Assembly (NCBI GenBank): GCA_958496175.1
Contig: OY292278.1
Span: 48,918,001-48,982,000, forward strand
DNA length: 64,000 bases
From: Sisyra terminalis
Lineage: Eukaryota; Arthropoda; Insecta; Neuroptera; Sisyridae
Reading direction: 5' to 3'
Below the pieces are notes generated by a model that ran no database searches, had not been told where the DNA came from, and was given only the letters and a program-made list of their open reading frames with translations. Below, piece after piece: positions 13,544 through 61,483 of this stretch. Numbering within the stretch: the stretch's first letter is position 1; each line of letters begins with the position of its first letter. Made by a program: the position numbers and the translations under genes.

Positions 13544-13809
13544 TATGTATATAAGTATAATAATTAAATTGTGGGCAATAAGGACGAAGTTTCTTATGGA
13601 ATATTATTTATTTTATCGCCAACGTTTCGTCATTCATTCCTGACTTCTTCAGGATTCTATAATGAAAATACATAACATTTAACAAAATAGCAATACATTA
13701 TTGTCAAATTTATAAATTTATAAACAAGAAGCTTCGTCCTTATTGCCCACATTTTAATTATTATATGTAAAAAAGACAAGGACTTAAACAACATGGATAT
13801 GTATATAAG
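13544..13809 (-). mobile_element. Penelope-like short insertion with perfect 12-bp target duplication
   Basis: A 12-bp direct repeat TATGTATATAAG (13544-13555 and 13798-13809) flanks a 242-bp insertion (13556-13797). The insertion has inverted arms GTGGGCAATAAGGACGAAG (13571-13589) and its near complement around 13729-13751. On the minus strand it carries a hammerhead-like core that resembles Penelope-like retroelement tails. No coding sequence. Confidence 0.7.
13610..13665 (-). ncRNA. Hammerhead-like ribozyme motif
   Basis: Minus strand, 5' to 3': CTGAAGA (13652-13646), one A, stem GTCA / TGAC with an 8-base loop, GAAA (13628-13625), then CGTT followed by GGCG. CTGANGA and GAAA are the hammerhead core blocks and GTT is an allowed cleavage triplet. 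Stem I is weak, and the single A between CTGANGA and the stem is a departure from the canonical fold. Such motifs are known from Penelope-like elements; activity here is inference. Confidence 0.5.
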
Positions 13810-13814
13810 GTATA

Positions 13815-13925
13815 TAATTTTGGGTAAAAATATTTGCTAATAGTTCATAAATAAAACGTAGATGGCAATCTAATCTTAACATAGTTTTGGGTGAAAATAT
13901 TTGCTAAGAATTAATAAAAAATAAA
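13815..13925. repeat. Short direct repeat
   Basis: The block TTTTGGGTAAAAATATTTGC (near 13817) recurs with one change about 68 bp later (near 13885), followed in both cases by TAA-rich sequence. Probably an old local duplication. Confidence 0.5.
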
Positions 13926-16061
13926 CTAAAAAATACAGTAAGTAACTTTCTTTTTTAAAGTTCAAAACTCTAAACGTTTATTACAGAAATTACTTTTAAA
14001 TATATTTAATACGACTATTAAAGTTTTTTTTAATTGTAAAATGCAATAAAAATTGGTATTGAATTGAAAATACCATTTATCGACAAAAGTGGTTATGAAG
14101 TATGGAAATTTATTAAGTTTTTCGATCAAATTGTTGATGCCTTATGTGCCTTTATGTGCTACTTTATACACAACTTGATCATGTAATTAACTATGGCTAA
14201 AATAAAAATCTAAAATATTTTTTCAATTGAAATATAAAAGATTAAATTAAGTTCTTGTTTAGTAAAAAAAGTATAGTTTACTGTGCTATGAATGGTTATG
14301 GTAGTAAATCACATGAAAATCCAGAAGTAAGTTTTCTTGCTATTCTCAAGTCTGATAGCTATTTCGTTTACGCCAAAAATTAATGCGAAAAAAAAGCAAA
14401 ATTTTTTCCTACCTTAGAAACTGATTCTTGTATTTCGTGGGTTCTTTTATATGAAAAAAATGTAAACAAAATGCATATAAAACCCACCACATTACTGCTT
14501 ATATTTTCATTATTTTACCACATTTTTTTAAGTACATATCAAACTTCACGAATCTTTTCTGCTTTAATAAAGTTTTCATGGTTTGGATTTTATATAATTC
14601 AGTCGAAAATCTATTATAAAGGAAATAAACAATAAACAAATTAAAATTAAAATTATAATACAAACTCAATGTTAACTTATGGGCAATTCTTTGGTTTTAC
14701 ACAATACGTAGCCACGTTTTTTAAACCGTACCCACAGGTCATATCTCAATTAAAATTATTATTAAATTATTGATTAAAATTAGTTTCGTTTTACCTACGT
14801 ACATCTTTAATATACTCGTACCTTAATACGTACAGTTTATAAAGAGCCCCATGGAATTTTAATAAAAGTGTTGTATATGCAACTATTTGTACATTCATGT
14901 AAGCCGGAAAGTATCAGGATGAAAATGTATGAACTAACAGTAGTTGTGGAAAATTTTGATTATCTAACATGTTTAATTGATATAAGACAAAAAATAAAAT
15001 ATTTGCATATTAAAAACTAACAAATTTTGTTTTTTTTTCACACAAATTTTTTTTCTTCTTGATTAATTGATCAAAAATATAGCGGACAACGCTAAACCAA
15101 AAATTTCTTAAGAATTTTGACCTTATTTCTTTTCCGAAATATGCATTAGTTTCTCTCTCTTTCTTTGATCAATTAGTAGACATAATCTACAAATTTATTA
15201 AATGGAAAAAATAGCAATTTTATCTTTGATTTGTTCAGAATTTAGCGTCTAAACTCGTAACAGTACTTTACTTCAATCTAAAAGAACAGTAATGCTAATA
15301 ATTTTATTCAAGCGACAATAAAGCAGATATTTTGAGCTTTGATTAAATTTAAAAATGCGTCACTTGGAGGATTTGTATGGACTTTAAATTCCGTCTTATG
15401 AATCATCTACTGGATCGTGATTTTAAAACGGAAAATTTGCCCTGGTTTTTTATTTCTAGTAGATGCAAAACTTTGTAACTTAAAAAAAATTTTTGTTAGA
15501 AAATATTCGGTGTTGTAACTGGACTAAATAATAAATATATATTAAACGTTGACATATGAAAACCGGTAGCGTGATTAATTTTTTTTTTTGACCATGAATT
15601 ACATTAAAATATAAAAATTGTTATTCCTGCATTTTTTAAAGAGATAACAATAAGATTGGATACTTAATATGCTTGTTAAATCAATTTCTTCACTGCTGCC
15701 ATTGTTATTGGATTAATTGTGTCTAATATCATTGAATTATTCAATTGATTGACGCATTTGGAGAATTTTTCTCGCGAATTGGATTTAATTTTAGTCTTAA
15801 TTTGCTAATTGAACTTTTTAAAACGATCGTTTGGTATTCTTTCGTTTGTGATGTTTGTAGTACATGTGCATACTTTTTTTTTCTCACCAAGTTATTAGTT
15901 TTCATAATATTTTCGATTGATTGGTTTCATTTATTGTTTGGACGTTATAGAGAGGGAAAATTGTAGTCTTTTTCAAATATAAATTTTTTTTTTGTATTAT
16001 GCAACGGCAGGGGAATTACCTACATTATCGACTATATATCGCCTTATCAGAGTGTATACAC
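13926..16061. other. Intergenic stretch without recognised content
   Basis: AT-rich unique-looking sequence. The 73-codon frame at 15745-15966 is hydrophobic and low-complexity and not recognised. Confidence 0.4.
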
Positions 16062-17023
16062 TAGACTGGACCAAAAAAATTGACTATTTTTTTTTTGAAA
16101 AGGATATCAAAAATATTGTTCAAGGTGATAAAAAAAATATCGGGAAAGTTTGAGCCCTTAATATTAATATTGAGAGGTCTATTATCTTTAATTTCGATTT
16201 TTTATTTGTGCTTTCATTATTGCGTCAATGCTGTTAAACTATCAAGGTAAAAAAAATTATCTGCATATATGTTTATAGAAAATTAAATTCCCTATAAAAA
16301 ATGTTTCTTTAAAAATTTTTGCCAGACACGCCGTTCCCGAATAATCAAGCTTTAAACATTGATATCATTTTTAATTTATCTTCATTATTTTGGAATTTTA
16401 TGACTAACCAACAAATAAATATATAGAAATGAAAAATATAGATTTTTGAAGGGAATTTAATGCTCTTCAAAAAAGGTCTTTAACGTTTTTACATAAAATC
16501 ACTCTTTCAAAATTGGTTCAACAACGAAAAAAAAAAAATTTTTTTTTAAACTTTAATTGTGAATAACTTTTGAAAAAGTGATTTTATGTAAAAACGTTAA
16601 AAGACCTTTTTTGTAAGGCATTAACTTTCCTTTAAAAACCTATATTGTTTATTTCTATATATTTATGTGTTCGTTGGTCACAAAATTTCAAAATAAAGAA
16701 GATAAATCTAAAAATTTTATCATTGTTTAAAGCTTGATTATTCGGAAACGGCGTATCTGACGAAAATTTTTAAAAAAACTTTTTTTGTAGGAAATTTAGT
16801 TTTCTATAATTATATGTGCAGATGATTTTTTTTACTTTGATAGTTTGACAGCATTGACGCAAATATGACAGCACAAATAAAAAATCGAAATTAAAGATGA
16901 TAGACCTCTTAATATTAATATTAAGGGCTTAAAATTTCCCAATATTTTTTTTGTCACCTTAAACAATATCTTCGATATACTTTTCAAAAGAAAAAAAAAT
17001 AGTCGATTTTTGGGCCCAGTCTA
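16062..17023. mobile_element. Long-palindrome MITE, family A copy 1 (complete)
   Basis: A ~960-bp element that is almost entirely a palindrome centred near 16540. It begins TAGACTGGACCAAAAAAATT and ends with the complement, GGCCCAGTCTA. Arms contain CTTAATATTAATATT, TTTCGATTTTTTATTTGTGC, ATGCTGT(T/C)AAACTATCAAG and ACATAAAATCACT, each met again in reverse complement. The TA at each end fits a Tc1/mariner-type TA target duplication; a wider TATACA repeat (16055-16060 and 17025-17030) also flanks it. No transposase frame. The RNA would fold into a long hairpin. Confidence 0.85.
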
Positions 17024-17049
17024 GTATACAGATGGCAAATAGAATTTAA

Positions 17050-17882
17050 TATTATTATTAATATTAATATTAAGAGGTCTATCATCTTTAATTTCGATTT
17101 TTTATTTGTGCTTTCTGCACATATTTTTATAGAAAATTAAATTCCTTACAAAAAACGTATCTTTGAAAATTTTTGCCAGTAACGCTGTTTCTGAATAATC
17201 AAGCTTTAAACATTGATATAATTTTTAGATTTATCTTCTTTATTTTGGAATTTTGTGACTAACGAAAAAACAAATATATAGAAATAAACAATATCGATTC
17301 TTAAACGGAATTTAATGCTCTACAAAAAAGACCTCTTACCATTTTTATATAAAATCACTCTTTCAAAATTGGTTCAACAACGAAAAAAACAATAATTTAA
17401 TTTTTTCTTCAACTTTGATTGTGAATAACTTTTGAGAAAGTGATTTTATGTAAAAACGTTAAGAGACCTTTTTTGAAGAGCATTAAATACTTTTCATGTA
17501 ACTATATTGTTCATTTCTATATATTTGTTTATTCGTTAGTTACAAAATTCCAAAAATGAAGAAGATAAATCTAAAAATTATATCAATGTTTAAAGCTTGA
17601 TTATTCGGAAACGGCGTGTCTGGCAAAAATTTTCAAAAAGACGTTGTTTGTAGAGAATTGTATTTTTTATAAATATATGTGCAGATATTTTTTTTCCTTG
17701 ATAGTTTGACAGCATTGACGCAAAAATGAAAGCACAAATAAAAAATCGAAATTAAAGATGATAGATCTCTTAATATTAATATTAAGGGCTCAAACCTTCC
17801 CGATATTTTTTTTGGTCACCTTAAACAATTTTTTCGATATACTTTTCAAAAAAAAAAAAAAAGTCGATTTTTTTGGCCCGGT
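17050..17882. mobile_element. Long-palindrome MITE, family A copy 2 (left end missing)
   Basis: Starts inside the arm near AATATTAAGAGGTCTATCAT and runs through the palindrome centre to TTTTTTTGGCCCGGTA. The first ~100 bp of the left arm are absent. It follows copy 1 after ~30 bp, which suggests insertion or recombination among related copies. Confidence 0.8.
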
Positions 17883-18025
17883 ACGGTTTAGTTGGGATAA
17901 TTGTGGCACCCTCAGCATCGCCTTTATGTCGATCTATTAAGTCGCCTCAATTCTTTATTGATAGAAAGAAAAAAATTATTTATAAATGGATTAATTGTCT
18001 TGCATAAAAAGCAAGTCGTTTTCAA

Positions 18026-18311
18026 TGATTATTCGGAAACGGCGTGTCTGGCAAAAATTTGTATAGAAATGTTTTTTGTAGAGAATTTAATTTTCTATAA
18101 ATATATGTGGAGATGAATTTTTTTACCTTGATAGTTTGACAGCATTGATGCAAAAATGAAAGCACAAATAAAAAATCGAAATTAAAGACGATGGACCTCT
18201 TAATATTAATAATAAGGGATCAAATCTTTCCAATATTTTTTTTGTTCCCTTAAACAATATCTTCTTTATACTTTTCAAAAAAAAAATAGTCGATTTTTTT
18301 GGGCCAGTTTA
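18026..18311. mobile_element. Long-palindrome MITE, family A copy 3 (right arm only)
   Basis: Contains GATTATTCGGAAACGGCGTG, the ATAGTTTGACAGCATTGA block and the right end GGGCCAGTTTA. Only the outer ~285 bp of the right arm remain. Confidence 0.8.
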
Positions 18312-19693
18312 ATAAATATAAAAATTTTGCTTACAATATCTATGTATTTCTTTTTTCCCTGGGTTGTGATGTTTGTAATAAACACATTGTGAGACTACCA
18401 TTGGTTAAACCACAATTCCCTTTCAAAGTAGAAGATTTTTTTTTCTTTGGAAAATTTGTAAGAACAGAGGCATTATATCAAATTAAATTAGTGTATAGTG
18501 CTAAATGACTTACCATTGCGAAAATCTATGAAATTTACTTTGTAATGGTCCTTGGATGATTTTAGTACCTATGTATATGGGTTTTGTCTATTGCATTATT
18601 AAAACCAGTGACTTAAAGGAAATTTTGTTGGATAATCTTTTATGAAACTATCGTCCAACTAACGGGACCTGTTGATGCTGTTGATGGCATTTGGACCAAC
18701 TTGACAGTGCCGCATTTTGGTTTCCGTCCGATTGGGTGTCTTAATTCGCATCATTCTTTCAACCCTTTGTTAGCCTATTAGTTAAAAAAATTGATTAGCG
18801 TGACTTGTTCGTGTTTTTCTTCTCAAGCATGACATGAATATCGTCTAAACAAAAGAACAAGAAGTTCTCTTTTCGTATGTGTGTCTTTTTTTTCTTCTCC
18901 TTTTCCTCGTCTTTTTCTCCATTCTTATTTTCGGAAATTAATAATCGTCGTCGTTTTGGGTCTCTTCCTACTCGGATCCACCTATTGGAAAGCGAAGCAT
19001 GACAGATGGAGGAACCGAACGGGTTCAAAGTTTGCGTGTGTAACAAGAGTGTACCTTTAGCTATGGATATCTTTTATTTACCACATATTGTTTATAATTT
19101 GTAACCCACCTGTTACGAATATATTCATATATATATTTGATGGACGACGCCTTTCGAACGGCGAGGCATCGGCAAAACGGTCAAATTTCAAAAAAAAAAA
19201 TTTTTTTTTAGGGTAAGTTTCGTTATTCAAATAAACCGTGTTTTTTTCGGTTTGCGTATTGTATTCGGATATTTGGTTCGGGGTTAAAAACTATAATTTG
19301 CTTTATATAATCAACACTTCCTCAAGTTTCTTCAATTAAAATATCTTTTTCATCGTTTTTTTTTTCGGATAAATTGAATTTTTTCGTGTGAAAATTCCTT
19401 TTTACAAAGTATTTGTTTTAATGTGTGAGGTCTTACCACTGAATCCTAAACATAAGTACTTATACAGGGTGTGCAGAACACCTACAAAAGTAAAGATCTA
19501 CCAAAAATATCTTAGAATGATATACTCTATTATCCCGTCCCCACTTTGGTCTACTTCTATATAAATATCATCAAATATTTATGATATCATTTTCGATTGA
19601 TTTATGCAATTAAAAGAACCTATCTTTTAAAATCCTCTATCCTATTTTATAGGTCTTCATACGTCCTAATGTTAATTTGGATTCAATCCTCCA
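18312..19693. other. Unique stretch with a GC-richer patch (18640-19060)
   Basis: No coding frame is convincing. The patch 18640-19060 has higher GC than its surroundings and no repeats from elsewhere in the window; it could be conserved non-coding DNA. The 83-codon minus frame (18795-19046) is lysine/glutamate-rich low complexity and not believed. Confidence 0.35.
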
Positions 19694-20112: not shown

Positions 20113-21489
20113 TCTATTGAATCCATAAGGATATTACCCAGTTTTTGGTCCAAGTGATCCAGAAAACTGAACTCTAAGATTAGTTAAATGAAAGGTAGTT
20201 TCTTCCACCTTTCCATACTTCCTGTTTTCCCAGTTAAATCGACATTCAATGGTGATGCAAAATTTCCCAAGATATCATCTTAATTTTCTATTTCAATTTA
20301 AAATTAATTTGTTAGGTTTTTTCAAAGATTTCAGCAATATAAAGGATAATTTGGAAAAAAGCTTTGTTTTTTTTTTTTTTTTTTTTATAGTTTTTCCCGA
20401 TACTGTGATACTTTCGGGAAAAAAAAGCAATTTATTTCATAAAAACCAAAATTTAAGAAAAATTTACTTTTTGGTGTCTTACTATGTCCCATTTAGCCCT
20501 GTTACGATATTTTACGGATAATTCCTAATCTTCAAGAGATGAATTTTACGTCTAAACATTTTTTGCTACTCCTGTAGCTGTTTCTGGAACCATTAATCCC
20601 ATAGTTTTGGTTCCTTAAATTGATTTGTTAGGCTTAACTAGGCCTCAAATTAGATTGGCTATCGTTTACTAACCACTAGATATTGGAGCTTAAAAAAGCT
20701 TTTAGGTACTTCGTGAAGTACTACAGAGTTAGATCATTCGAAATATAAATTCTACTACCTAGAAGATGAAAATGTTTTCCCTATTTTATTGGATTGTAGC
20801 GTTCTAGATGTAGATGTTGGATCATTGGTACGAAGCCCTGTTTACCGATTGTTGAAAGCTCAGCTTTTTGGGCTACAGTTGATGAAAAATCCACGACTCA
20901 GGGAACATTTAAAGCCTTAGATTGAAATGTTGAGGCCTCCAAATCATGTCCTAGTAAATCATTTCAGCGCAAAAAGTAGATTTTGGATCTACAAATTTTC
21001 AATATAAATCACGATGATTTACTTCTTCAGTGGTTTTTTGTAGTCTCAAACTTTTGTGATCAAAATCGATGAAGTTCGTGAAGCTTTTATACTTCTAAAT
21101 CACCAATACTCTCTTCTAAATTACCAATGCCAAAACTTTCGACTTCATCTACGTGGTAGTACTCATTGCTGCCAAATTGATCTCCTTTTTCGATATGCAG
21201 TGATCTTTTGCTGCAGAACAATAAACATGTAATACTTTAATGAAGAAATAAAGAATATTTAATTTAATTAAATTTTAATTTAATTTAATAATTTAATTTA
21301 ATAATTTAATTTAATAATTTTAATTTAATAATTTTTTTTTCATAATCCTTGTATTTTTTAATCTTAATCTTTATTGAATAAATCAAGAAATTCCTTCAGA
21401 ATTCGACAAAATTGTCATCCTTGAAGTCTTCATCATAGGTCTTTGGAACTTATGCCTGAATTCCAAGCTTAATCGAAAGATTTTTAAAC
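20113..21489. other. Unique stretch with AT microsatellite (21255-21332)
   Basis: A (TTTAATTTAATAA)-type simple repeat lies at 21255-21332. The rest shows no recognised gene. The 90-codon frame at 20249-20521 includes a poly-F run from a T tract and is not believed. Confidence 0.45.
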
Positions 21490-21922
21490 GATAAGAATCG
21501 TGTGAATACAATATATAGAATATATTGCGGTTCAATTTATGTAGTACAATTTAGTATAATAATATATAAAATTCATACCATAAACATAAACTTAAACAGC
21601 AGTTCAAACAAAAATATCCGCGACGTATTACTCAGATACGTATTTCGATTGCCAAGCAATCTTCCTCAGTGGTCATCAAGTAATTTTGATCACTCGGTAA
21701 CTGCTTTGTGATGATTGCTTGGCAATCGAAGTACGTATCTGGGCAATACGTCGCGGATATTTTTGTTTGCACTTCTGTTCAAATTTATGTTTATGGTATG
21801 ATTTTTATACATTATTATATTGAATTGTACTTTTTAAATTGGACTGCAATATATTTTATATATTGTATACACAGTATAACTGTTCAAAGTCAACGAACAA
21901 ATCTTATTTTGATAAGAATCGT
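21490..21922. mobile_element. Palindromic hammerhead-like insertion, family 1, perfect 12-bp target duplication
   Basis: GATAAGAATCGT at 21490-21501 and 21911-21922 flanks a 409-bp insertion made of two inverted arms (about 21502-21700 and 21714-21890). Each arm carries AATATATAGAATATATTGCG-type sequence, a GATTGC-CAAGCAATC hairpin and the ACGTATCTGGGCAATACGTC block (or complements). The left arm holds, on the minus strand, CTGAGGA-A-hairpin-GAAA. The right arm has lost its CTGA block. No coding frame. Confidence 0.75.
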
Positions 21923-24293: not shown

Positions 24294-25180
24294 AGGTGAA
24301 AAAAATTTGATTTTGGAGTATCAAAAACATTAACTTATGCATCAAACTATCGGAAAAGTTCTCCGACCCATATTAGTTTCCGTGTAACTACTGAAGCTGT
24401 CTACAAAACGTTATAGTTTCAGGATTCAGTCAAATGCTTTAAATGCCTTAAAATCCACCCCAAATATCCAAATTGGGGTTTATACTACAAAAATATCGAG
24501 ACCCAAACTTTTTGTTTCAATCTAAATATACAATATGAGAAAAATAATTTTTCTTAGCCCCTCACCATCCACTTTACCATAATTCAATTCAATTCCTCCA
24601 CATCAACAAGAAAAATAAGACGTAGGTGAAAAAATTTGATTTGGAAGTATCAAAAATATTAACTAGTGAATCAAACTATCGGAAAAGTTCTCCGATCCAT
24701 ACCAGTTTAACTACTGAAACTGTCTACAAAATTTTATAGTTTCAGGATTCAATCAAGGGCTTTAAATGCTTTAAAATCCACCCCAAATATCAAATTGGGT
24801 ATCCCAAATACTACAAAAATATTGAGACCCAAACTTTTTGTTTCAATCTTAGTATAAAATATGAGAAAAATCAAAATAAGACTTTGTGATGATTCACCAA
24901 AAGCAGTTACGGAGTGATCCAAACTACTTGATGAACACTGATGAAGGTTGCTTGGCAATCGAAATACGTAACAAATATTTTTGTTTGAACTTCTGTTCAA
25001 ATTTATGTTTGTGGTATGATTTTTTTATATATTATTATATTAAATTATGCTACACAAATTGGACTGCAATATATCTTATATATTGTATACACATGAGAAA
25101 AATCATTTTTCTTAGCCCCTCGCCATCCACTTTACCATAATTCAATTCAATTCCTCCACATCAACAACAAAAATAAGACG
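24294..25180. repeat. Tandem duplication of ~325 bp, second copy interrupted
   Basis: The block starting GGTGAAAAAAATTTGATTTT (24294) recurs at 24625, with matching order of ATCGGAAAAGTTCTCCGA, TTTAAATGC, AAAATCCACCCCAAATAT and CTTAGCCCCTC. The second copy is split by a 220-bp insertion at 24873-25092. Confidence 0.85.
24861..25104 (+). mobile_element. Hammerhead-like insertion, family 1 single arm, perfect 12-bp target duplication
   Basis: ATGAGAAAAATC at 24861-24872 and 25093-25104 flanks 220 bp. The sibling copy of the tandem duplication (around 24537) lacks the insert, which gives a near empty site. The insert carries CACTGATGAAGGTTGCTTGG, then CAATCGAAATACG on the plus strand, and ends TATTGTATACAC. 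It lacks the usual ATCTGGGCAATACGTC block. Confidence 0.85.
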
Positions 25181-25834
25181 TACAACAACATTCAAGCAAT
25201 AATTACAATTGTTGGTAAATTCGAGTAAATCGTAATTACCACGTTATGACAGACATATATAATTAACCGATCATTATACGGCATGCGCATCATTTTACGT
25301 AATAACAACAATGGTTAATGAAAGAAGACAACATAAACGATAATTTTTTTCTCGTGAAAGAAATAATTTTTGTCGAAAATCTGAGTTCATATTAATAAAA
25401 AAAATATTAAGCAGAGAGAAAAAAAAACGGGTTAAATGTATAAAAATTGAGATAATGGATCTAATTAGTGATCCATCCTCGGTGTCCGTATGTTGCCAGC
25501 GACTGAAATTAATTGTCCGTCCAACCATTAATAACCTTACTTAAACGAGAAGCTTGCAAAACGGCTTTAAATTAAAAAAAAAATATAATTTCTTAATATA
25601 TTTTTTTCGGAATTTTTTTTTCAGAATCTTAACAAACTTAAATAGTTGTAATCTTTGTTTTTAACTAAGCTATGCATAACGAATCATTTCCCTACTTTTA
25701 TATGGTTAAGTTAAGTTTTTAATTGCCTGCATTTGTGGTTTTTAATGGGGAGAAAAAATTATCATGGGTAAACATTGAAGTGATTGTCTTTCAAACGCAT
25801 AATAGGACCTTATAAAATTACTTTAAGCGTGAAA
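25181..25834. other. Intergenic stretch without recognised content
   Basis: Unique-looking AT-rich sequence. The 77-codon minus frame (25295-25528) is not recognised. Confidence 0.4.
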
Positions 25835-25962
25835 GCTCAACAAAATAGATGATAAAATTCAGATCTCAGCTTTTATTAAATAAGTAGGCAATTCAGGTGG
25901 TTTAAGATCTTAAAACCGATCTTAAGCAACCTGAATTATCTTCTTATTTAGCTCAACAAAAT
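25835..25962. mobile_element. Short foldback insertion, family 3, perfect 12-bp target duplication
   Basis: GCTCAACAAAAT at 25835-25846 and 25951-25962 flanks a 104-bp foldback insertion that starts AGATGATAAAATTCAGATCT and ends AACCTGAATTATCTTCTTAT. The same start and end define the longer copy at 56417-56624, which keeps a hammerhead-like core; here the centre is deleted. Confidence 0.8.
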
Positions 25963-26226: not shown

Positions 26227-26422
26227 AGGAAGTAAATAATCGATAAATTTGTTTTGTCCATACTTTCCATAATATTATTTAATTTTTAACAGGAAAGTGG
26301 ACTTAAAGGATGTAAATCCACAAACTTATAATTAATAAAAGACCAAAACGTCGCTGTATTAATTATTAGTTTATAAATTTACACCCTTTAAGTCCACTTT
26401 CCTGCTAAAAAAGAAGCAAATA
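26227..26422. mobile_element. Short foldback insertion, family 2, imperfect 12-bp duplication
   Basis: AGGAAGTAAATA (26227-26238) and AAGAAGCAAATA (26411-26422) match at 10 of 12 positions and flank 172 bp. Inverted arms GGAAAGTGGACTTAAAGGAT and the complement lie at about 26291 and 26384. The centre keeps GACCAAAACGTCGCTG, a decayed 3' half of a hammerhead-like core. The related longer copy is at 48995-49372. Confidence 0.6.
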
Positions 26423-26448
26423 TTTTTCCAATTATTTAGAAAGATATT

Positions 26449-26841: not shown

Positions 26842-27265
26842 TGTAGGCCACGAACTCAATTGAAGTTTGTGGAAACTACATCTGAAAGAAGTCAAAAATT
26901 TAAACAGTTTGATATTCCTTTAACTTTATAACTCATTTAAGTGATTTCTAAGAAGCTTTCGTTAATTTTATTTTCTAAAATCACAGAATATTAGGCTAGA
27001 ATCCTACAAAAGTTTTGCAAACATTGTGAGATCTCCTTCAATGTTGATTTTCCTTCAATATCTAATAATTTAGAATCACAAATAAGCTACCAATTTCCAA
27101 TTTTCGTTTACCATTTTATAAATTCCAATCCAATTCTCATGCGGTACGTGATGCATCCAGAAGAAATTCGTACATATCTTCTGACTGATTCAAATTTCAA
27201 AATTCTTCTTATGACGTCATTTTTTTTTTCTAATGGGGCAACCTGTGTAATTTATAAACCTTGCT

Positions 27266-27650
27266 ATGAGGCAAGACCAATGTAAACAAGTCTTGGAAAC
27301 GAAGTTATTGCCTCAAACTATAGAGTGGTTTCCAGAAAGAAATTGTATCTTTATACAGGATGGAGTTGCTTGTTGTAAGGCCAAAAAAGTTATGAATTTT
27401 CTCAAAAATTCTAACATTAATATGTCTTCTTGGCTAGGAAATAGTCCTGATGCTAATCCCATAGAAATTTTGTGGGCCATTATGCAGAAAAAAATTAATA
27501 GAAATAAACTTTTACATCACGGATGGATCTGATTATCAAACTCATTAAGATTTGGCATCATAAAATATACTGAAATGAAAAAATAGTATAGAGCATGCCA
27601 GGATGAGAAAAATAAATTATAAACGACAAGGGTACCACACAAAATATTAG
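27266..27650 (+). pseudogene. Tc1-like transposase relic (C-terminal half)
   Basis: The 88-codon frame 27266-27532 encodes the end of a Tc1-family DDE transposase: FIQDG with the second catalytic Asp (residue 32), KKVMNFLK, W.GNSPDANPIE with the catalytic Glu (residue 67) and AIMQKKI. Asp and Glu are separated by 34 residues, as in DD34E Tc1 elements. After the stop at 27532 the family pattern continues in other frames (LIKIWHH, SMPG) and ends GYHTKY before TAG at 27648-27650. The N-terminal DNA-binding half and the first Asp are missing, so it is dead. Inverted repeats were not identified. Confidence 0.9.
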
Positions 27651-37621: not shown

Positions 37622-37896
37622 TCTACATGATCAAAATAAAATTTTTTCGCTGACTTTGAACAGTTATACTGTGTATACAATATATAGAAAATATTGCGGT
37701 TAAATTTATGTAGTATAATTTAATAAAATAATATATAAAAATCATACCACAAATTTGAACCGAAATTCAAATAAAAATATTCGTGACGTATTGCCCAGAT
37801 ACGTATTTTGATTGCCAAGCAATCTTCCTCAGTGTTCATCAAGTAGTTTGGATCACTCCGTAACTGCTTTGTGATGATATTTTTTCTACATGATCA
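37622..37896 (-). mobile_element. Hammerhead-like insertion, family 1 single arm, perfect 12-bp target duplication
   Basis: TCTACATGATCA at 37622-37633 and 37885-37896 flanks 251 bp. One end reads TCGCTGACTTTGAACAG then TTATACTGTGTATAC, as in the copies at 21490 and 60692. On the minus strand CTGAGGA and the GATTGC/GCAATC hairpin are kept, but the G of GAAA is changed, so the core is broken here. Confidence 0.85.
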
Positions 37897-41590: not shown

Positions 41591-42575
41591 TAGACTGATT
41601 CAAAAAAAATGACGATTTTTTTTTTCTTAATTATACCAAAAATATTGTTGCGAATGACAAAAAAAAAATTCTGTGAAAGTTTAAGCTCTAAATATTAATA
41701 TTAAGAGGTGCCGCAACGCAAATTTCGATTTTCCATTTAAATAACATGGGAACAATATTCTCTTGCACTTTGGAATTTTATAGCTAACGTTGGTGACAAT
41801 ATTTTGGAATGACCAAGGTATATTCTTGTAGAAAATTAAACGATCTACAAAAAAGGTCTCGTAAAAGTTTTTATTATATTTATTCCTTCAAAAGTTATTC
41901 GAGGTTAAAGTTGAACTAAAGAGAAATTTTAATATTTTTTCAATTTTTTGACGCAACCATCAATTTTATGAGAAAATTTTATAAGACATTTTTTGTAGAG
42001 CACTTTGTTTTCTATAACTTATCTTTGTAAAAGTTTTTGATATTTTTCACAGGTCCTAAGTTATTTAATTAAAATAAAAAAAATAATTTTTATGTTAAAA
42101 CTATAATAATTCAGAGAATTTTCAGTTTAATGCAAATAACTTAAGACCTGTGAAAAATATCAAAAACTTTATATAAATAAGTTATAGGAAAAAAAGTGCT
42201 CTACAAAAAATGTCCTATAAAACTTTTTCATAAAATTGATGGTTGCGTCAAAAAATTGAAAAAATATTAAAATTTATCTTTAGTTCAACTTTGACCTCGA
42301 ATAACTTTTGAAGAAATAAATATATCAAAAACTTTTTTGGGAGCTTTTTTGTAGATCGTTCAATTTTCTACAAGAATAGAAAATCTTGGTTATTCCGAAA
42401 TATTGTCACCAACGTGAGCTATAAAATTCCAAAGTGCAAGAGAATATTGTTTCCATATTATTTAAATGGAAAATTGAAATTTGAGACACTTTCACATGAT
42501 ATTTTTTAGTCATTCCTAACAATATTTTCGATATCCTTAAGAAAAAAAAATCATATTTTTTTTTGAATCAGTCTA
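41591..42575. mobile_element. Long-palindrome MITE, family B copy 1
   Basis: Begins TAGACTGATTCAAAAAAAAT and ends with the complement TTTTTGAATCAGTCTA. The ~985-bp body is a palindrome with blocks AATATTAATATTAAGAGGTG, TTTCGATTTTCCATTTAAAT, TATAGCTAACGTTGGTGACA and CATCAATTTTATGA, each with an inverted mate. Ends resemble family A (TAGACTG) and fit TA insertion. No transposase. Confidence 0.88.
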
Positions 42576-42720
42576 TTGTACATAGTCTGAAACAATTTTG
42601 ACTTTCCCGAAAAAAAATAGTCCCAGCAAATTTTTTAAGCTCAAGTGATTTTAGGGCATCATTCATCTAAATTTGGATCGATTTTTTTTCGAAAATGATT
42701 CAAAAAATTAGTAGAAATAT
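42576..42720 (+). repeat. Long flanking direct repeat, right copy (locus B1)
   Basis: Starts TTGTACATAGTCTGAAACAA directly after the element and ends AAAATTAGTAGAAATAT, the same end point as the left copy. It is locus-specific: the sequence does not flank the second family B element. Confidence 0.85.
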
Positions 42721-46357: not shown

Positions 46358-46605
46358 TTAGCCCAACCTAAAGATATATTTTTAGCACCTCTCCATATAA
46401 AACTTGGCCTGATGAAAAACTTTGTGAAAGCAATGGATAAAAATGGCGCTGGATTCAATACCTAAAAGAAAAATTCCCTAAAATCAGTGACGCTAAGATT
46501 AAAGAAGGTGTGTTTGTAGGTCCTCAAATCAGGTAAGTGAAAAAAGATGATATATTTAAAGAACAACTCGATGATCTAGAAAAACCAGCTTTTTTTTCTG
46601 TGTAG
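46358..46605 (+). pseudogene. Unclassified element protein, internal piece
   Basis: Frame one reads LAQPKDIFLAPLHIKLGLM, NFVKAMDKNGAGF, then a frameshift near 46455 leads to YLKEKFPKISDAKIKEGVFV and GPQIR, followed by stops. From memory, this pattern is common among uncharacterised repeat-borne proteins of arthropods, usually upstream of the HFLHSHLDFFP region seen at 46939-47256. No domain name can be given with certainty. Not functional. Confidence 0.6.
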
Positions 46606-46786
46606 CAAGAAAAATTTTGACTGATTCTGTTAGGAATAAGGTCAAGTAGAGTAGAATTAGTAATATAAACTTTTAGATACGAATAGTTTTATTGTAATAT
46701 GATTTTTTTTACTTTTCTTAAATTACAAACTATTTTAACAAAAATTAAATTTTTATCAATGTTATAATATTAATTTAAGTACTTTC

Positions 46787-46936
46787 TTATGATTTTCTCC
46801 TATATTTTGCGTCGGGAACGTCCCTCTGTAATCCCCAGCAATAATCTGCCAGCATAGTTGGACTCCATTTTTCCTGGTATCGTTTTTCTATGGTAAAAAT
46901 GTCTTGGTGGAATTTTTTCCCGTGTTCATCACTCAT
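46787..46936 (-). pseudogene. Inverted duplicate of the element protein's C terminus
   Basis: The minus strand encodes 49 codons plus stop starting MSDEHGKKFHQDIF and ending DVPDAKYRRKS. This is a second, diverged copy of the end of the frame at 46939-47256 in opposite orientation. The two pieces face away from each other with only 2 bases between their first codons (46936 and 46939). Confidence 0.8.
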
Positions 46937-46938
46937 AA

Positions 46939-47256
46939 ATGATTATAAAAATCTTTGAAAAATTTCTTGGAAGTCACCGATCAAATGACTATAAAACTAT
47001 TGTCGAGGAACTTTTAGAGAAAAAAAAAACATTAGGCTGCAATATGCCCTTAAAAATACATTTTTTACATTCACATTTAGACTTTTTTCCCCCAAACTTG
47101 GGTGCCGTTAGTGATGAACATGGGGAAAGATTCCACCAAGACATTGTTACCATAGAAAAACAAAACCAGGGAATATGGAGTCCAATTATGCTGGCAGATT
47201 ATTGCTGGGGATTACAGAGGGACGTTCCTGACGCAAAATATAGGAGAAAATCATAA
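46939..47256 (+). pseudogene. Unclassified element protein, C-terminal piece (105 codons)
   Basis: The frame carries FEKFLGSHRSNDYKTIVEEL, MPLKIHFLHSHLDFFPPNLG, SDEHGERFHQDI, ADYCWGLQRDVPDAKY and a stop at 47254-47256. From memory it matches the conserved end of a widespread arthropod repeat-associated protein of unknown function. It lacks the N-terminal part, which lies in broken form at 46358-46605 behind the inverted insert, so it is a fragment. The ATG at 46939 is probably not a native start. Confidence 0.7.
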
Positions 47257-47473
47257 GAAAGTACTTATATTAATATTATAACATTGATAAAAATTTATTT
47301 TTTGTTAAAATAATTTTTAATTTAAGAAAAGTAAAAAAAATCATATTGCAATAGAACTATTCGTATCTAAAAGTTTAGACTACTAATTCTACTTTACTTG
47401 ACCTTATTCCTAACAGAATCAACCAAAAATTTTCTTGTTACACAAAAAAAAAGTTTTTTGTTGATCAGTGATT

Positions 47474-48989: not shown

Positions 48990-48994
48990 AAATT

Positions 48995-49372
48995 TCATAA
49001 TATTATTTAATTTTTAGCAGGAAAGTGGACTTTTATTTGACCTTCATCAGGCTTCTAAAAAATCATATTAAATACAAACACATGTTTACAGAACTTTTCA
49101 GGACATTCTAATTGTTAAATTGTTAACTTACCTTAATATGAAGTATATAATTTAAGAATAAAGAACAATTGAGCAATTAAGATTGTCCTGAAAAGTTCTG
49201 TAAACATGTGTTTGTATTTAATATGATTTTTTAGAAGCCTGATGAAGGGCAAATAAAGGACCGAAAAGTCGCTGAATTAGTTGTTAGTAAATGGATTTAC
49301 ATCCTTCAAGTCCACTTTCTTGCTAAAAATTAAATAATATTATGTAAAGTATGGACACAACAAATTTATCGG
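48995..49372. mobile_element. Palindromic hammerhead-like insertion, family 2
   Basis: Left arm CATAATATTATTTAATTTTT then GCAGGAAAGTGGACTT, and right arm ending in AAGTCCACTTTCTTGC then AAATTAAATAATATTATG, enclose ATGTGTTTGTATTTAATATG-type inner arms. The end GTATGGACACAACAAATTTA matches the outer end of the family 2 copy at 26239. No clear 12-bp target duplication was found here. The right arm carries a hammerhead-like core. Confidence 0.75.
49231..49282 (+). ncRNA. Hammerhead-like ribozyme motif
   Basis: CTGATGA at 49239-49245, one A, a stem of GGGC / GACC (one mismatch; the left arm has GGTC), GAAA at 49263-49266, then AGTC and GCTGAATTAG. AGC before the core can pair with GCT after it (stem I). 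Core blocks CTGANGA and GAAA are intact and GTC is the classic cleavage triplet. The C expected between GAAA and GTC is A here. Confidence 0.5.
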
Positions 49373-49429
49373 TAAAAATCGGTAATAAGCGATATTGCAC
49401 TATTCAAAGCAATACAAATTTAAAAAAAA

Positions 49430-49747: not shown

Positions 49748-50717
49748 TAGACTAGGCCAAAAAATCGACTATTTTTTTTTTTTAAAAGTATATCAAAAAT
49801 ATTGTTCACGATGACAAAAAAAAATATCGGGAAGGTTTGAACCCTTAATATTAATAATAAATGGTCTATCATCTTTAATTTCGATTTTTTATTTGTGCTT
49901 TTATTTTTGCGTCAATGCTGTCAAACTATCAGGGTAAAAAAATCCATCTGTACATATGTTTCTAGAAATTTAAATTCCCTACAAAAAACATTTCTTTGAA
50001 AATTTTGCCAGGCACACCCTTTCCGAATAATCAAGCCTTCAACATTGATATAATTTTTAGATTTATCTTCTTTATTTTGGAATTTTGTAACTAACGAACA
50101 AATAAATATATAGAAATAAACAATGTAGATTCTTGAAGAGAATTTAATGCTCTACAAAAAAGGTTTCTTAACGTTTTTACATAAAATTACTTTTTCAAAA
50201 GTTATTCACAATTACTGTTAAAGGAAAAATTAAATAATTGTTTGCTTCGTTGTTGAACCAATTTCGAAAGAGTGATTTTATGTAAAAACGTTAATAGACC
50301 TTTTTTGTAGAGCATTAAATTCTTTTCATGTAACTATATTGTTCATTTCTATATATTTATTTGTTCGTAGGTCACAAAATTCCAAAATAAAGAAGATAAA
50401 TATAAAACTTATATCAATGTTTAAAGCTTGAGTATGCGGAAACGGCGTATCTGGCAAAAAATTTTATAGAAACGTTTTTTGTAAGGAATTTAATTTTCTA
50501 TAAATATATGTGCAGATAATTTTTTTTAATTTGATAGTTTGACAGCATTTACTCAAAAATGAAAGCACAAATAAAAAATCGAAATTAAAGATGATAGACC
50601 TCTTAATATTAATATTAAGGGCTCAAACCTTCCCGATAATTTTTTTTTGTCACCTAGAACAATATTTTTGATAAACTTTTCAAAAAAAAAAGTAATCGAT
50701 TTTTTTGGCCCAGTCTA
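49748..50717. mobile_element. Long-palindrome MITE, family A copy 5 (complete)
   Basis: Starts TAGACTAGGCCAAAAAATCG and ends TTTTTTTGGCCCAGTCTA, with the same arm blocks as the copy at 16062-17023 and a centre near 50230. TA at each end. The 80-codon frame 50647-50889 merely crosses its right end. Confidence 0.88.
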
Positions 50718-52701: not shown

Positions 52702-52889
52702 TTGCACATTTATATTTAGTTGAAAGAAATATTTATGTTGAATCACTTATTGGAAAGTTTGATAGCTTGGCGCCGACTTAAAAATTGGGATTTAAATTAA
52801 TTTGGAACTTTAGTCATCAAAGTAATGTATTTTTTAATAAATTGATTGTATAAATTTAACTTTCTAATATTTTTATCATATATGTACCT
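52702..52889 (+). repeat. Long flanking direct repeat, left copy (locus B2)
   Basis: 188 bp from TTGCACATTTATATTTAGTT to ATTTTTATCATATATGTACC, abutting the left end of the family B element. Its counterpart begins directly at the element's right end (54170). Confidence 0.8.
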
Positions 52890-54169
52890 TAGACTAAAAA
52901 AAATGAAAATTTTTTTTTTCTTAATTATATCGAAAATATTGTTGGAAATGATAAAAAAAATCCTGTGAAAGTTTAAGCTCTTAATATTAATATTAAGAGG
53001 TACCGCATCGCAAATTTCGATTTTCCATTTAAATAACATGGGAACAATATTCTCTTGCACTTTGGAATTTTATAGCTAACGTTGGTGACAATATTTCGGA
53101 ATGACTAAGATATATTCTTGTAAAAAATTAAACGATCTACAAAAAAAGTCTCGTACAAGTTTTTGATATATTTATTCCTTCAAAAGTTATTTGAGATCAA
53201 TGTTGAACTAAATAGAAATTTTAATATTTTTTCAATTTTTTGACGCAACCATCAATTTTATGACGCAACCATTAATTTTATGAAAAAATTTTATAGGACA
53301 TTTTTTGTAGAGCAATGTTTTTTCTATAACTTATCTGTATAAAAGTTTTTGATATTTTTTACAGGTTCTAAGTAATAAAAAAAAAATAATTGTAATGTTA
53401 AAAATATAATAATTCAGGAAATATCATTAACTTGAAACAATAAAATTACGAATATTTTCAATGTAATGCAAATAACTTAGGACCTGTAAAAAATATAAAA
53501 AAACTTTTATAGAGATAAGTTGTAGAAAAAAAAGTGCTATATAACTTATCTCTATAAAAGTTTTTGATATTTTTCACAGGTCCTAAGTTATGTGCATTAA
53601 AACTGAAAATATTCGTAATTTTATTGTTTCAAATTAATAATATTCCCTGAATTATTATATTTTTAACGAAAATTTTTTTTTTATTTTAATTAAATAACTT
53701 AGGACCTGTGAAAAATACCAAAAACTTTTATAGAGATAAGTTATAGAAAAAATAGTGCTCTACAAAAAATGTCCTATAAAGTTTTCTCATACAATTGATG
53801 GTTGCGTCAAAAAATTGAAAAAATATTAAAATTTCTCTTTAGTTCAACTTTGATCTCGAATAACTTTTGAAGGAATAAATATATCAAAAACTTGTTTGAC
53901 ACCTTTTTTGTAGATCGTTCAATTTTCTACAAGAACATACCTTAGTCATTCCGAAATATTGTCACCAACGTAAGCTATAAAATTCCAAAATGCAAGAGAA
54001 TATTGTTCCCATGTTCTTTAAATGGAAAATCGAAATTTGCGATGCGGCACCTCTTAATACTTAATATTAAGAGCTTAAACTTTCACAGAATTTTTTTTTG
54101 TCATTCCCAACAATATTTTCGATATAATTAAGAAAATAAAAATTCATCATTTTTTTTTGAATCAGTCTA
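52890..54169. mobile_element. Long-palindrome MITE, family B copy 2
   Basis: Starts TAGACTAAAAAAAATGAAAA (left end worn) and ends TTTTTTTTGAATCAGTCTA. It shares AATATTAATATTAAGAGGTA, TATAGCTAACGTTGGTGACA and the other blocks of the copy at 41591. The centre is enlarged by extra inverted copies of the TTCACAGGTCCTAAGTTAT / complement segment (53340-53740) and a repeated TTTTATGACGCAACCAT. No transposase. Confidence 0.88.
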
Positions 54170-54859
54170 TTGCACATTTATATTTGATTGAAAGAATTTT
54201 TTTATTTTATTTTATTTAAAGTCACTGTTTAACATCTTGGTCATTAATGACTTAAATAATTTACATGTTACAATTGGTAATAAATGTTCAGTTCTAATAA
54301 ATAATAGTTAACAATTCTAATAAATGATAATAATAAACAAATTCTATTAAATGATAATAAAATAATAAATTCTAATAGTAAACTTGGCTTATAGGTATGT
54401 TTTTGTACTTTATATTGTATCAAATAATTATTTTTTTTTTAAGAATTCTAATTCAGGCACTCTTTCATTTTATGAGAAAACTTTATAGAATATTTTTTGT
54501 AGAGCACTTTTTTTTTCTATAACTTATCTCTATAAAAGTTTTTTATATTTTTCACAGGTCCTAAGTTATTTCATTAAACTGAACATATTCGTAATATTAT
54601 TGTTTTACATTAATAATATTCGCTGAATTATCAAATTTTTAACATATTTTTATTTATTACGTAGAACCTATAAAAAATATCAATAGTATAAATAACATAA
54701 AATTTATGTTAAATCCTTAATTTGAAAGTTTGATAGTTTGGCACCGACTCAAAATTTGTCATTTTAAATTTTGGAAATTAAGTCATTAAAGGATTTATAT
54801 TTTTTAATAAATTGAATTTTTTAAACTTTACTATGTAGTATTTTTATCATAAATGTACC
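54170..54859 (+). repeat. Long flanking direct repeat, right copy, interrupted (locus B2)
   Basis: TTGCACATTTATATTTGATT (54170-54195) then, after ~505 bp of other sequence, TTTATGTTAAATCC to ATTTTTATCATAAATGTACC (54699-54859), which stops at the same point as the left copy. The interrupting part holds AATAAATGATAATAA-type simple repeats (54298-54372) and a family B fragment. Confidence 0.75.
54466..54670. mobile_element. Family B palindrome fragment
   Basis: TTTTATGAGAAAACTTTATA, TTTTTTGTAGAGCAC, CTATAAAAGTTTTTTATATT and CACAGGTCCTAAGTTATTTC blocks match the central arms of the elements at 41591 and 52890. Both ends are missing. Confidence 0.75.
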
Positions 54860-56404: not shown

Positions 56405-56636
56405 ATTTTTCTTAATAGATGATAAAAATCAGATCTCAGCTTTAAAATTGTTTAAATAAGAGAAAAATTCAGGTTGTTTTAGATCTTTAATTTTTTAATA
56501 TTTTATTATTTCAAAAAGCAACGTTTCGGTACGTAATCGTAACTTCCTCAGGCTCTAAGCCTATTAATAAAATATTAAAAAATTAAAGATCTTAAACAAC
56601 CTGAATTTTTCTCTTATTTAAACAATTTTTCTTTAT
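56405..56636. mobile_element. Foldback hammerhead-like insertion, family 3, near-perfect 12-bp duplication
   Basis: ATTTTTCTTAAT (56405-56416) and ATTTTTCTTTAT (56625-56636) match at 11 of 12 positions and flank 208 bp. Inverted arms AAATAAGAGAAAAATTCAGG and complement enclose a minus-strand hammerhead-like core. The same element ends are seen in the 104-bp copy at 25847-25950. Confidence 0.75.
56508..56562 (-). ncRNA. Hammerhead-like ribozyme motif (best copy)
   Basis: Minus strand: AGAGC, CTGAGGA (56551-56545), A, an imperfect stem II with TACG/CGTA closed by an ATTA loop, GAAA (56527-56524), C, GTT, then GCTTT. AGAGC and GCTTT can pair over five positions as stem I. All invariant core blocks are present. 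The GAAACGTT layout, with almost no stem III, is what is known for minimal hammerheads of Penelope-like elements. Confidence 0.55.
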
Positions 56637-56701
56637 TTTCGCAAAATAGTTTACAAAAGGATTAATGCTGGCACACAACCAAAAAAGCAATTAGTAGTTA
56701 C

Positions 56702-59845: not shown

Positions 59846-60125
59846 TAGACTGGGCCAAAAAAATTGGCTACTTTTTTTTTTTTTGAAAAGTATATCGAAA
59901 ATATTATTCAAGGTGACAGAAAAAAAATATCGGGAAGATTTGAGCCCTTAATATTAATATTAAGAGGTATATCAGCTTTAGTTTCGATTTTTTATTTGTG
60001 CTTTCATTTTTGCGTCAATGCTGTGAAACTATCAAGGTAGAAAAAATTCAACTGCACATATATTTATTGAAAATTAAATTTCCTACAAAAAATATCTTGT
60101 TAAACATTTTTGCCAGATACGCCGT
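59846..60125. mobile_element. Long-palindrome MITE, family A copy 7 (left arm, cut by hAT MITE)
   Basis: TAGACTGGGCCAAAAAAATT to GCCAGATACGCCGTTT, where the arm stops at the start of a hAT-type MITE. The usual continuation (CCGAATAATCAAGC in other copies) is absent downstream. Confidence 0.82.
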
Positions 60126-60333
60126 TTCAGTGGTCTTCAAAATTTTTGTCCTCATGGACCACTGAGTTCAAAATTTATTCCTTTCCGATTATCAGAGGAT
60201 TTTTTAAGTTAAAATATATTTTCTGTGGACTAGCAAAATTTTTCATGGATAAGTAGTGGTTCGTGGACAACCATTTTGGTGATCACTGGTATACAGTGTT
60301 CTTCTTATCCCTTCTAAATTTCTTTGTACAAGT
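60126..60333. mobile_element. hAT-type MITE with shared flank, inverted copy
   Basis: CAGTGGTCTTCAAAATTTTT to TTTTGGTGATCACTG is the reverse complement of the MITE at 56851-57011, and its right flank GTATACAGTGTTCTTCTTAT is the reverse complement of that copy's left flank. The shared unit is therefore longer than the MITE itself. Confidence 0.75.
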
Positions 60334-60691
60334 GGTATCGTTCAAATGCCATTCTTAAATGAATAACCAACTGAAACACTACAGACATTTTGGTTTGATC
60401 AATATATAACGACAAATTTTGAACTCTCTTCCCCCTCTTGCATCTAAACCATCATATATATTTGAGTTTTATTGAAATAATATTTTTATGTTTGATAACT
60501 TAGATGAAAAGCTCGATTTTTAGCTAAAGCTTCAAATGAATGTTTCTCGAATTTGTTCATATAATTGGTTAGGTTATGAAAACACTATAGATTTTGATCA
60601 GAGGGGTGAAACTTAGCAAATTTTGATATTTCAAGAAATAAGCAACTCAAAAATTCTTTGTAAAATTGATTTAAAGTCTTTTTTCAAAAAA
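60334..60691. other. Intergenic stretch without recognised content
   Basis: Unique-looking AT-rich sequence with no gene or repeat recognised. Confidence 0.4.
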
Positions 60692-61483
60692 TCCCAATTA
60701 AATAATCAAAATAAGACTTTTATTTTTCAAAATAAGATTTTTTCGCTGACTTTAAACAGTTATACTGTGTATACAATATATAGAATATATTGCGGTCTAA
60801 TTTATGTAATATAATTTAAGATAATAATATATAAAAATCATACTATACACATAAATTCGAACAAAAGTTCAAGCAAAAATATTCGTGACGTATTGCCCAG
60901 ATACGTATTTCGATTGCCAAGCAATCTTTCTCAGTGACCATCAAGTAGTTTTGATCACAAAGCAGTTACCAAAATTGTCCATTTAGATCACTAAATTCAA
61001 AATTTAATTCTTTCCGATTATCAGAGGATTTTATAAGTGTTAAATATATTATGATAAGAAAGGAAGGACCAGCGAAATTTTCTGATAGATCACTCTTGAT
61101 CTCATAGATCATAGATCACCATTTGTGGTCTACCAATGGTGGTCCACGAACCACTAGTGATCCATGAGAAAATTTCGCTGGTCTTTCCTTTCTTATCATA
61201 ATATATTTAACACTTATAAAATCCTCTGATAATCGGAAAGAATTAAGTTTTGAATTCAGTGTTCCATAAGGACAAAAATTTTGATAACTGCTTTGTGATC
61301 CAAAGTACTTGATGACCACTGAGGAAGATTGCTTGGCAATCTAAATACGTATCTGGGCAATACGTCACGAATATTTTTGTTTGAACTTCTGTTCAAATTA
61401 GTGGTATGATTTTTATATATTATTATATTAAAGTATCTTACATAAATTGGACCGTAATATATTCTATATATTCCCAATTGAAA
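60692..61483. mobile_element. Nested palindrome: hammerhead-like family 1 arms around inverted hAT-MITE arms
   Basis: TCCCAATTAAAT (60692-60703) and TCCCAATTGAAA (61472-61483) match at 10 of 12 positions. The left arm (about 60780-61085) and right arm (61165-61471) are near-complementary over ~300 bp. The outer part is family 1 (GACGTATTGCCCAGATACGT, GATTGCCAAGCAATC, TCAGTG). The inner part is the hAT-MITE body (TCCGATTATCAGAGGATTTT, TATTATGATAAGAAAGGAA). The right arm keeps CTGAGGA and the hairpin but has TAAA in place of GAAA. The spacer centre is near 61125. Confidence 0.8.

What the first reader, a model, noticed from the sequence alone, without database searches (positions are those of the whole stretch)
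13544..61483. Eight short insertions from three sequence families all carry 12-bp target duplications, and the longer ones carry hammerhead-like cores
Direct repeats bordering unrelated-looking foldback insertions are 12 bp each time: TATGTATATAAG (13544/13798), GATAAGAATCGT (21490/21911), ATGAGAAAAATC (24861/25093), GCTCAACAAAAT (25835/25951) and TCTACATGATCA (37622/37885) are perfect. Copies at 26227/26411, 56405/56625 and 60692/61472 match at 10-11 of 12. The sequences differ by locus, so they are duplications of target DNA. Members of the families share CTGANGA-A-stem-GAAA. Penelope-like elements are known to carry hammerheads, but, as far as I know, their target duplications vary in length. 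A fixed 12-bp length would point to a distinct integrase/endonuclease or a distinct non-autonomous superfamily using one enzyme.
Basis: partly seen in the sequence, partly recalled or inferred. Interest (0 to 1): 0.85.

Follow-up and report, generated by a model that had tools for sequence, protein, structure and literature searches.

The report
Penelope retroelements with fixed 12-bp duplications
The short folded-back insertions are pieces of a known type of insect jumping gene (Penelope-like retrotransposons); where the copied target DNA can still be read it is usually 12 bases long, which suggests that their enzyme cuts the two DNA strands a constant distance apart.

Summary
All eight direct repeats are present: five perfect, three at 10-11 of 12. 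An element-free tandem paralogue carries one of the 12-mers once. The window lies in a 376.6-Mb insect genome. The insertions are terminal pieces (pseudo-LTRs) of Penelope-like elements (PLEs): four families, nine window copies, mostly head-to-head with a one-sided 'tail', and minimal type-I hammerheads in longer copies. Family A is joined to an RT/GIY-YIG-endonuclease ORF; 18 of 111 listed genome matches sit in open frames of 819-854 codons. Genome copies with a detectable duplication centre on 12 bp: 33 maximal repeats of 11-18 with mode 12 in A, C and D, and 12 of 14 family-B copies. Mispaired flanks give far fewer. Many copies show none, and family C also has three of 10 bp. In 49 target sites AAN-[12 bp]-NTT is enriched, fitting a symmetric endonuclease with a 12-nt stagger. 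One published PLE set has 8-10 bp; I found no report of a constant 12 in the papers I could search.

The parts
13556..13797 (.). C1: family-C PLE pseudo-LTR foldback insertion; tailed end right (..TTAAACAACATGGA)
   Evidence: 129 genome matches listed
13544..13555 (.). left copy of 12-bp target duplication TATGTATATAAG (right copy 13798-13809)
13625..13652 (-). family-C hammerhead core CTGAAGA-stem II-GAAA
21502..21910 (.). A1: family-A head-to-head pseudo-LTR pair; tail-less left end (..TATTCAC), tailed right end (..CTTATTTT)
21490..21501 (.). 12-bp duplication GATAAGAATCGT (right copy 21911-21922)
21637..21669 (-). family-A hammerhead core, intact
24873..25092 (.). A2: family-A insertion; short tail piece left, tail-less right end; hammerhead core 24938-24970 (+)
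24861..24872 (.). 12-bp duplication ATGAGAAAAATC (right copy 25093-25104)
24535..24546 (.). empty site: single ATGAGAAAAATA in the tandem paralogue 24294-24623 that lacks the insertion
25847..25950 (.). B1: truncated family-B foldback, no hammerhead; duplication GCTCAACAAAAT 25835-25846 / 25951-25962
26239..26410 (.). D1: family-D foldback, tailed end left; duplication 10/12 at 26227 / 26411
37634..37884 (-). A3: single-armed family-A pseudo-LTR with tail; duplication TCTACATGATCA 37622-37633 / 37885-37896; hammerhead G12 changed to A
48993..49371.
56417..56624. B2: family-B foldback; duplication 11/12 at 56405 / 56625; hammerhead-like core (-) about 56519-56553 with a bulged stem, read by eye
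60704..61471 (.). A4: family-A pair with other foldback DNA between the arms (60975-61275); duplication 10/12, only 8 exact

Best explanation
The insertions are pseudo-LTR pieces of four families of Penelope-like retrotransposons of an insect. Shown: PLE anatomy (pseudo-LTRs, mostly head-to-head; a tail on one end only; minimal type-I hammerhead sequence), an attached RT/GIY-YIG ORF for family A, target duplications centred on 12 bp, and an enriched dyad target AAN|12 bp|NTT. Inferred: two enzyme subunits nick the two strands 12 nt apart, each at N^NTT, leaving 12-nt 3' overhangs. One 3' end primes reverse transcription at the distal (tailed) start site of the RNA, helped by 1-4 bases of pairing. 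In two-armed copies the other 3' end primes on a second RNA at the proximal (tail-less) start site. The two cDNAs are joined head-to-head. Filling of the overhangs makes the 12-bp duplication, whatever the insert between.
For: Duplication real: empty site. Length: 33 distinct repeats in fetched loci of families A, C and D (two of them the window's own 13544 and 37622) have maximal exact length 11:3, 12:15, 13:8, 14:2, 15:2, 16:2, 18:1; a fixed 12 with about 0.29 chance match per side predicts, by my arithmetic for the 30 of 12 or more, about 15/9/4/1.5/0.6 at 12/13/14/15/16. Both ends anchored by family termini, not by repeats: A 9 of 32 pairs give 11-14 (mispaired: none of 956 reach 8), C 9 of 44 give 12-18. 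Family B 12 of 14 two-armed copies, all 12-16, mispaired 4 of 182, lengths 9-10. Target motif, 49 sites: A at -3 34/49, A at -2 35/49, T at +14 33/49, T at +15 30/49 (single-position p from 3e-7 to 2e-4). Single-armed A3 also has a perfect 12. Tailed and tail-less ends recur at fixed positions. PLE identity: the L032 ORF has RT and GIY-YIG matches below Pfam cut-offs and 374 homologues, many of the 120 listed with PF00078, PF26215 and PF01541. 7 of 100 listed family-A tails lie within 2 kb downstream of an ORF match on the same strand (6 of 7 at 316-440 bp); random shifts mean 0.05, largest 2, opposite strand 0. The published anole PLE cleaves and primes on both strands at 5'-ATT, is predicted dimeric, and its tail spans two RT start sites.
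Against: Many anchored copies show no duplication (A 30 of 44 anchors, C 19 of 29, D 33 of 42, B 2 of 14), from truncation, decay, partner ends out of reach, or another integration route; L032 itself is one of them. With both ends anchored, A also has one 7 and one 8, and C has three of 10 where mispairing predicts 0.4, so some shorter or damaged duplications exist. The 17-18-bit thresholds favour longer repeats; meets this for A and C only. D has a higher background (38 of 1688 mispaired). A cruder test gave A 11 of 30, C 6 of 30 and D 5 of 30 against 6, 18 and 26 of 870 mispaired. Window copy D2 has none, A4 is weak. Motif positions were chosen after seeing 37 of the 49 sites, so the p-values are not a blind test; T at +15 is only just significant over all positions. 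The 3' overhang, the dimer and double-ended priming are inferred. The anole paper reports no homology between RT start site and target, unlike the short pairing I infer. An ORF was tied only to family A.
Confidence: 0.86

Rival explanations
1. Foldback or MITE-type DNA transposons mobilised by one transposase that makes 12-bp duplications.
For: Inverted-repeat shape; near-fixed duplication length.
Against: The inverted arms do not reach both boundaries: one end carries a tail. A3 has one arm and still a perfect duplication. Family A is joined to an RT/endonuclease ORF. The ten other foldback or repeat bodies of the window that I tested show no perfect 12-bp repeat, only low-complexity near-matches.
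Confidence: 0.03
2. PLE pieces whose duplication length is variable (say 9-15) and only appears fixed because short repeats are hard to detect in AT-rich DNA.
For: Detection thresholds; 8-10 bp and absent duplications reported for Adineta PLEs; maximal lengths from 10 to 18 seen; three 10-bp cases in family C.
Against: With both ends anchored, family A gives none at 9-10 although mispaired matches above 7 do not occur. Lengths above 12 roughly follow the chance-extension curve, and many extra bases are element-borne in sister copies. The dyad motif sits at a constant 12-bp spacing.
Confidence: 0.08
3. Metazoan retrozymes: small non-autonomous hammerhead elements spread as RNA circles, using some other retrotransposon's enzymes.
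For: Short, non-coding, type-I hammerhead sequence.
Against: These copies are inverted, carry PLE tails and, for family A, lie beside the PLE ORF; retrozymes are described as repeats processed to circles (passages; direct orientation of the animal ones is recalled). Circular RNA was not testable.
Confidence: 0.03

Closest known systems
Poseidon-type PLE of Anolis carolinensis (PAc; PMC11167929, passages, main text)
   Same: RT plus GIY-YIG ORF, hammerhead in the pseudo-LTR, tail between two RT start sites, AT-rich cleavage (5'-ATT) on both strands, priming on both strands
   Different: No duplication length in its text (search for TSD and 'target site dup' found none); there the RT start site is said not to match the target, here 1-4 bases of pairing are suggested
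Penelope families of Adineta vaga (PMC3846280, passages, Discussion)
   Same: Head-to-head inverted pseudo-LTRs, optional 31-bp tail on one of them, palindromes at the inverted junction, target duplications, empty-site proof
   Different: Duplications of 8, 9 and 10 bp or none there; about 12 bp here; no dyad target motif in what I read
Hammerheads of PLEs (Cervera and de la Pena 2014; Lunse 2017; summarised in PMC7761336, passages; the papers themselves not held)
   Same: Minimal type-I hammerhead with almost no helix III, thought to cleave as dimers
   Different: Family A has a longer self-complementary AUACGUAU where B and C have ACGU (usual form recalled); activity untested

Membership tests
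Penelope-like element (EN-bearing) | ORF with RT followed by a C-terminal GIY-YIG endonuclease | tested here: met
   Family A only: L032 ORF, RVT_1 15.4 bits and GIY-YIG 15.9 bits, both below Pfam cut-offs; an L023 fragment GIY-YIG 20.7 bits; fragments of L052 and L012 had no GIY-YIG match. Homologues carry PF00078/PF26215/PF01541; ORF lies upstream of A tails. Not tested for B, C, D
Penelope-like element (EN-bearing) | Pseudo-LTRs, direct or head-to-head inverted | tested here: met
Penelope-like element (EN-bearing) | Optional 3' tail on one pseudo-LTR | tested here: met
   one tailed end per window insertion, with the same endpoint (within a base) in sister copies of A and B
Penelope-like element (EN-bearing) | Minimal type-I hammerhead | tested here: met
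   All required features in A 44/59, B 26/28, C 45/51, D 35/59 arms. Sequence only; Rfam models do not match
Penelope-like element (EN-bearing) | AT-rich target, target duplication | tested here: met
Foldback/MITE DNA transposon | Terminal inverted repeats reaching both duplication copies | tested here: not met
   one-sided tail, single-armed A3
Metazoan retrozyme | Direct tandem hammerhead units | tested here: not met
   arms are inverted
Metazoan retrozyme | Circular RNA | not testable with these tools
   no RNA data

The most novel reading that the evidence does not exclude
In EN-bearing PLEs the duplication length is a fixed constant of a dyad-symmetric endonuclease dimer (12-nt 3' overhang at N^NTT on each strand), and both 3' ends prime reverse transcription at two different RNA start sites, which explains the tail asymmetry and the head-to-head copies in one mechanism.
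Probability: 0.5. Interest if true: 0.65.

Novelty: new variant of a known kind. Interest (0 to 1): 0.5.

Why it matters
How Penelope-like elements integrate is still open: the anole study says that the later steps are yet to be validated. A near-constant 12-bp stagger with a dyad AAN/NTT motif, seen in four families, gives a precise prediction for the cut geometry of a GIY-YIG endonuclease fused to a reverse transcriptase. Double-ended priming would explain why so many copies are head-to-head with one tail. If it holds elsewhere, a 12-bp duplication with one tailed and one tail-less end could be used to find PLE-mobilised DNA.

Tried and rejected
Rfam on the window and on 13 loci: only weak, below-threshold hits, nearly all microRNA models on foldbacks, no hammerhead family. 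Exact pattern scans for families A and C in viral contigs and for A in genome contigs: 0 matches. GIY-YIG model PF01541 on the genome: one hit, in my reading the host SLX1-like gene in L091 (name recalled); the PLE endonuclease scores below that model's cut-off. Family PF26215 is not in the library (that it is a helix-turn-helix family is recalled). Solved structures: only E 0.24 hits to group-II-like RTs. Window-wide direct-repeat census: further 12-mers (e.g. CCCTGGTCGTTA, TAAAGTCGACAA) lie around DNA without foldback; simulations expect about 4 such 12-mers, so I did not count them. RNAcofold dimers did not give a clear double hammerhead fold, so the dimer idea rests on sequence pattern and literature.

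Considered and dropped: that GAT at family-A tailed ends is simply part of the tail. Repeat starts vary by -1 to 4 bases there, so microhomology is stated only as likely; it is clearest in family B (A, T, T, T at positions 1-4 in 9, 10, 9 and 8 of 11).
Full report
What was checked. One insertion has a built-in empty-site control: 24294-24623 is a tandem duplicate of 24624-25182 without the insert, and it carries the 12-mer once, with one base changed.

What they are. In hammerhead orientation the arms of a two-armed insertion point away from each other (head-to-head). One end is tailed and the other ends earlier or is truncated. In family A the tail-less ends of 21502 and 24873 stop at the same base, and the tailed ends of three insertions stop within one base of each other. 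In family B both tailed ends stop at CATCT. This is the anatomy described for Penelope-like elements: pseudo-LTRs, inverted head-to-head copies, optional tail, the tail lying between two reverse-transcription start sites.

Hammerheads. CTGANGA-A-stem II-GAA-..-U-H with a short stem I is found in all four families. All required features are kept in 44 of 59 (A), 26 of 28 (B), 45 of 51 (C) and 35 of 59 (D) arms found with up to 10 substitutions in the fetched loci (overlapping loci were not merged). Core bases change less than the rest of the motif (0.026/0.040, 0.004/0.012, 0.013/0.034, 0.023/0.059 per site), but they were also used to find the motif. Rfam models do not recognise them. Activity is untested.

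Genome. The window lies in a 376.6-Mb genome in 11 contigs. A prohibitin gene at its left end is closest to insect proteins among the named rows of the 120 listed, so the host is an insect. The family-A tail pattern occurs 1805 + 1801 times with up to 3 mismatches, against 0 for the reversed pattern; only 100 places were listed.

Autonomous partner. Locus L032, brought in by family A, holds a 376-aa frame with weak RT and GIY-YIG matches (15.4 and 15.9 bits, below Pfam cut-offs), preceded by an inverted family-A piece and followed by a sense family-A pseudo-LTR with tail. It has 374 homologues at E 0.001 or better; the 120 listed are unnamed or from insects as far as named, many with PF00078, PF26215 and PF01541. 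In the genome 111 matches are listed, 18 of them in open frames of 819-854 codons, nine of exactly 839. Of the 100 listed family-A tails on contig 1, 7 lie within 2 kb downstream of one of 34 ORF matches on the same strand, four of them at 316-318 bp. Random shifts give 0.05 on average (largest 2) and the opposite strand gives 0. Locus L052 has an endonuclease fragment between its two family-A arms, and its duplication before the anchored end is 12 bp (14 by maximal match). I tied no ORF to families B, C and D.

Duplication length. Starting from the tailed end only, 14 of 44 (A), 10 of 29 (C) and 9 of 42 (D) anchors have a matching repeat of 18 bits or more upstream, against 13 of 1852, 6 of 806 and 38 of 1688 for mispaired flanks. 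The 33 distinct maximal lengths, extended backwards as well, are 11:3, 12:15, 13:8, 14:2, 15:2, 16:2, 18:1; two of the 33 are the window's own copies, and one 11 (L041) lies in family-D DNA and may be a repeat of that. With both ends anchored by family termini, A gives 11:2, 12:3, 13:2, 14:2, plus one 7, one 8 and 21 of 5 or less among 32 pairs; mispaired pairs never exceed 7 in 956. C gives 12:5 and four of 14-18 among 44; it also gives 10:3, where mispairing predicts 0.4, and the remaining 32 are 8 or less (several anchor pairs per locus are included, so many pairs are not real insertions). In family B, 12 of 14 copies chosen for having both arms have 12:4, 13:6, 15:1, 16:1, against 4 of 182 mispaired, none above 10. 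Many of the extra bases are element-borne in sister copies, for example the last T of the family-B tail. Over 49 sites at 17 bits or more, trimmed for tail-borne bases in B, C and D, the lengths are 10:1, 11:6, 12:24, 13:9, 14:4, 15:2, 16:3; three window sites (21490, 24861, 25835) were entered as 12.

Target. Oriented with the tailed end at the right, the 49 sites show A at -3 and -2 and T at +14 and +15, mirror images about the 12-bp centre. The enrichment is seen in each family, weakest in C at -2 and +15 (6 of 12 each) and in D at -3 (5 of 10). The positions were picked from 37 of these sites. Each nicked strand would read N^NTT, close to the 5'-ATT of the anole enzyme. Next to the tailed end the first bases differ by family (B: ATTT; C: T in 11 of 12; D: A in 8 of 10), as expected if the primer end pairs with each family's RNA.

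How it works. Shown: duplications, their length, the motif enrichment, two recurrent end points per family, an RT/GIY-YIG ORF with family A. Inferred: symmetric cutting with a 12-nt 3' overhang, priming from both 3' ends at two start sites, head-to-head joining. The single-armed 37634 copy with a perfect duplication suggests that the length does not depend on two arms.

What is known. PLE anatomy, hammerheads, tails and both-strand cleavage are published. My literature basis for length is one set (8, 9, 10 bp or none). In nine searches I found no report of a constant 12-bp duplication for PLEs; most results were seen as listings, and passages were read in PMC7761336, PMC3846280, PMC11167929, PMC8969392, PMC12910113 and PMC7334843. 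The 2014, 2017 and 2021 PLE papers are not held, and the 2005 and 2006 reviews cited I did not try, so this is weak evidence of novelty.

Verdict. The repeats are real, and their length peaks at 12 in all four families of this genome. The elements are Penelope-like retrotransposons, not a new superfamily. The near-constant stagger and the dyad motif are the interesting part.

Noticed in passing
41444-41590 / 42576-42720 and 52728-52888 / 54699-54859: Two related foldback elements (41591-42584; 52896-54169) are each bordered by unrelated long direct repeats of about 150-190 bp (84% and 80% identical): very long target duplications, or insertion into older tandem repeats.
   Followed up: partly
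3646-11124: Tandem array with a period of about 475 bp.
   Followed up: no
27251-27529: Remnant of a DDE_3 transposase, Tc1/mariner-like in my reading.
   Followed up: no
46572-47467: Large foldback with a coding piece (..EHGERFHQDI..) that has no Pfam match; a similar piece lies beside the family-A copy in L059.
   Followed up: no
loci, 16 bases beyond the duplication (position +28): T in 27 of 37 target sites, without a mirror counterpart; not retested.
   Followed up: no
21690-21720, 37850-37880, 61276-61300: The head loop of family A (AAAGCAGTTAC..) occurs in both orientations, as if flipped at head-to-head junctions.
   Followed up: no
16062-18313, 49748-50717, 59846-60128: Another large foldback family sharing partly similar ends with the 41591 and 52896 elements; no clear target duplication.
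   Followed up: partly
20997-21030: A further hammerhead-like CTGAAGA-stem-GAAA match (-) outside the four families; chance or an old PLE remnant.
   Followed up: partly
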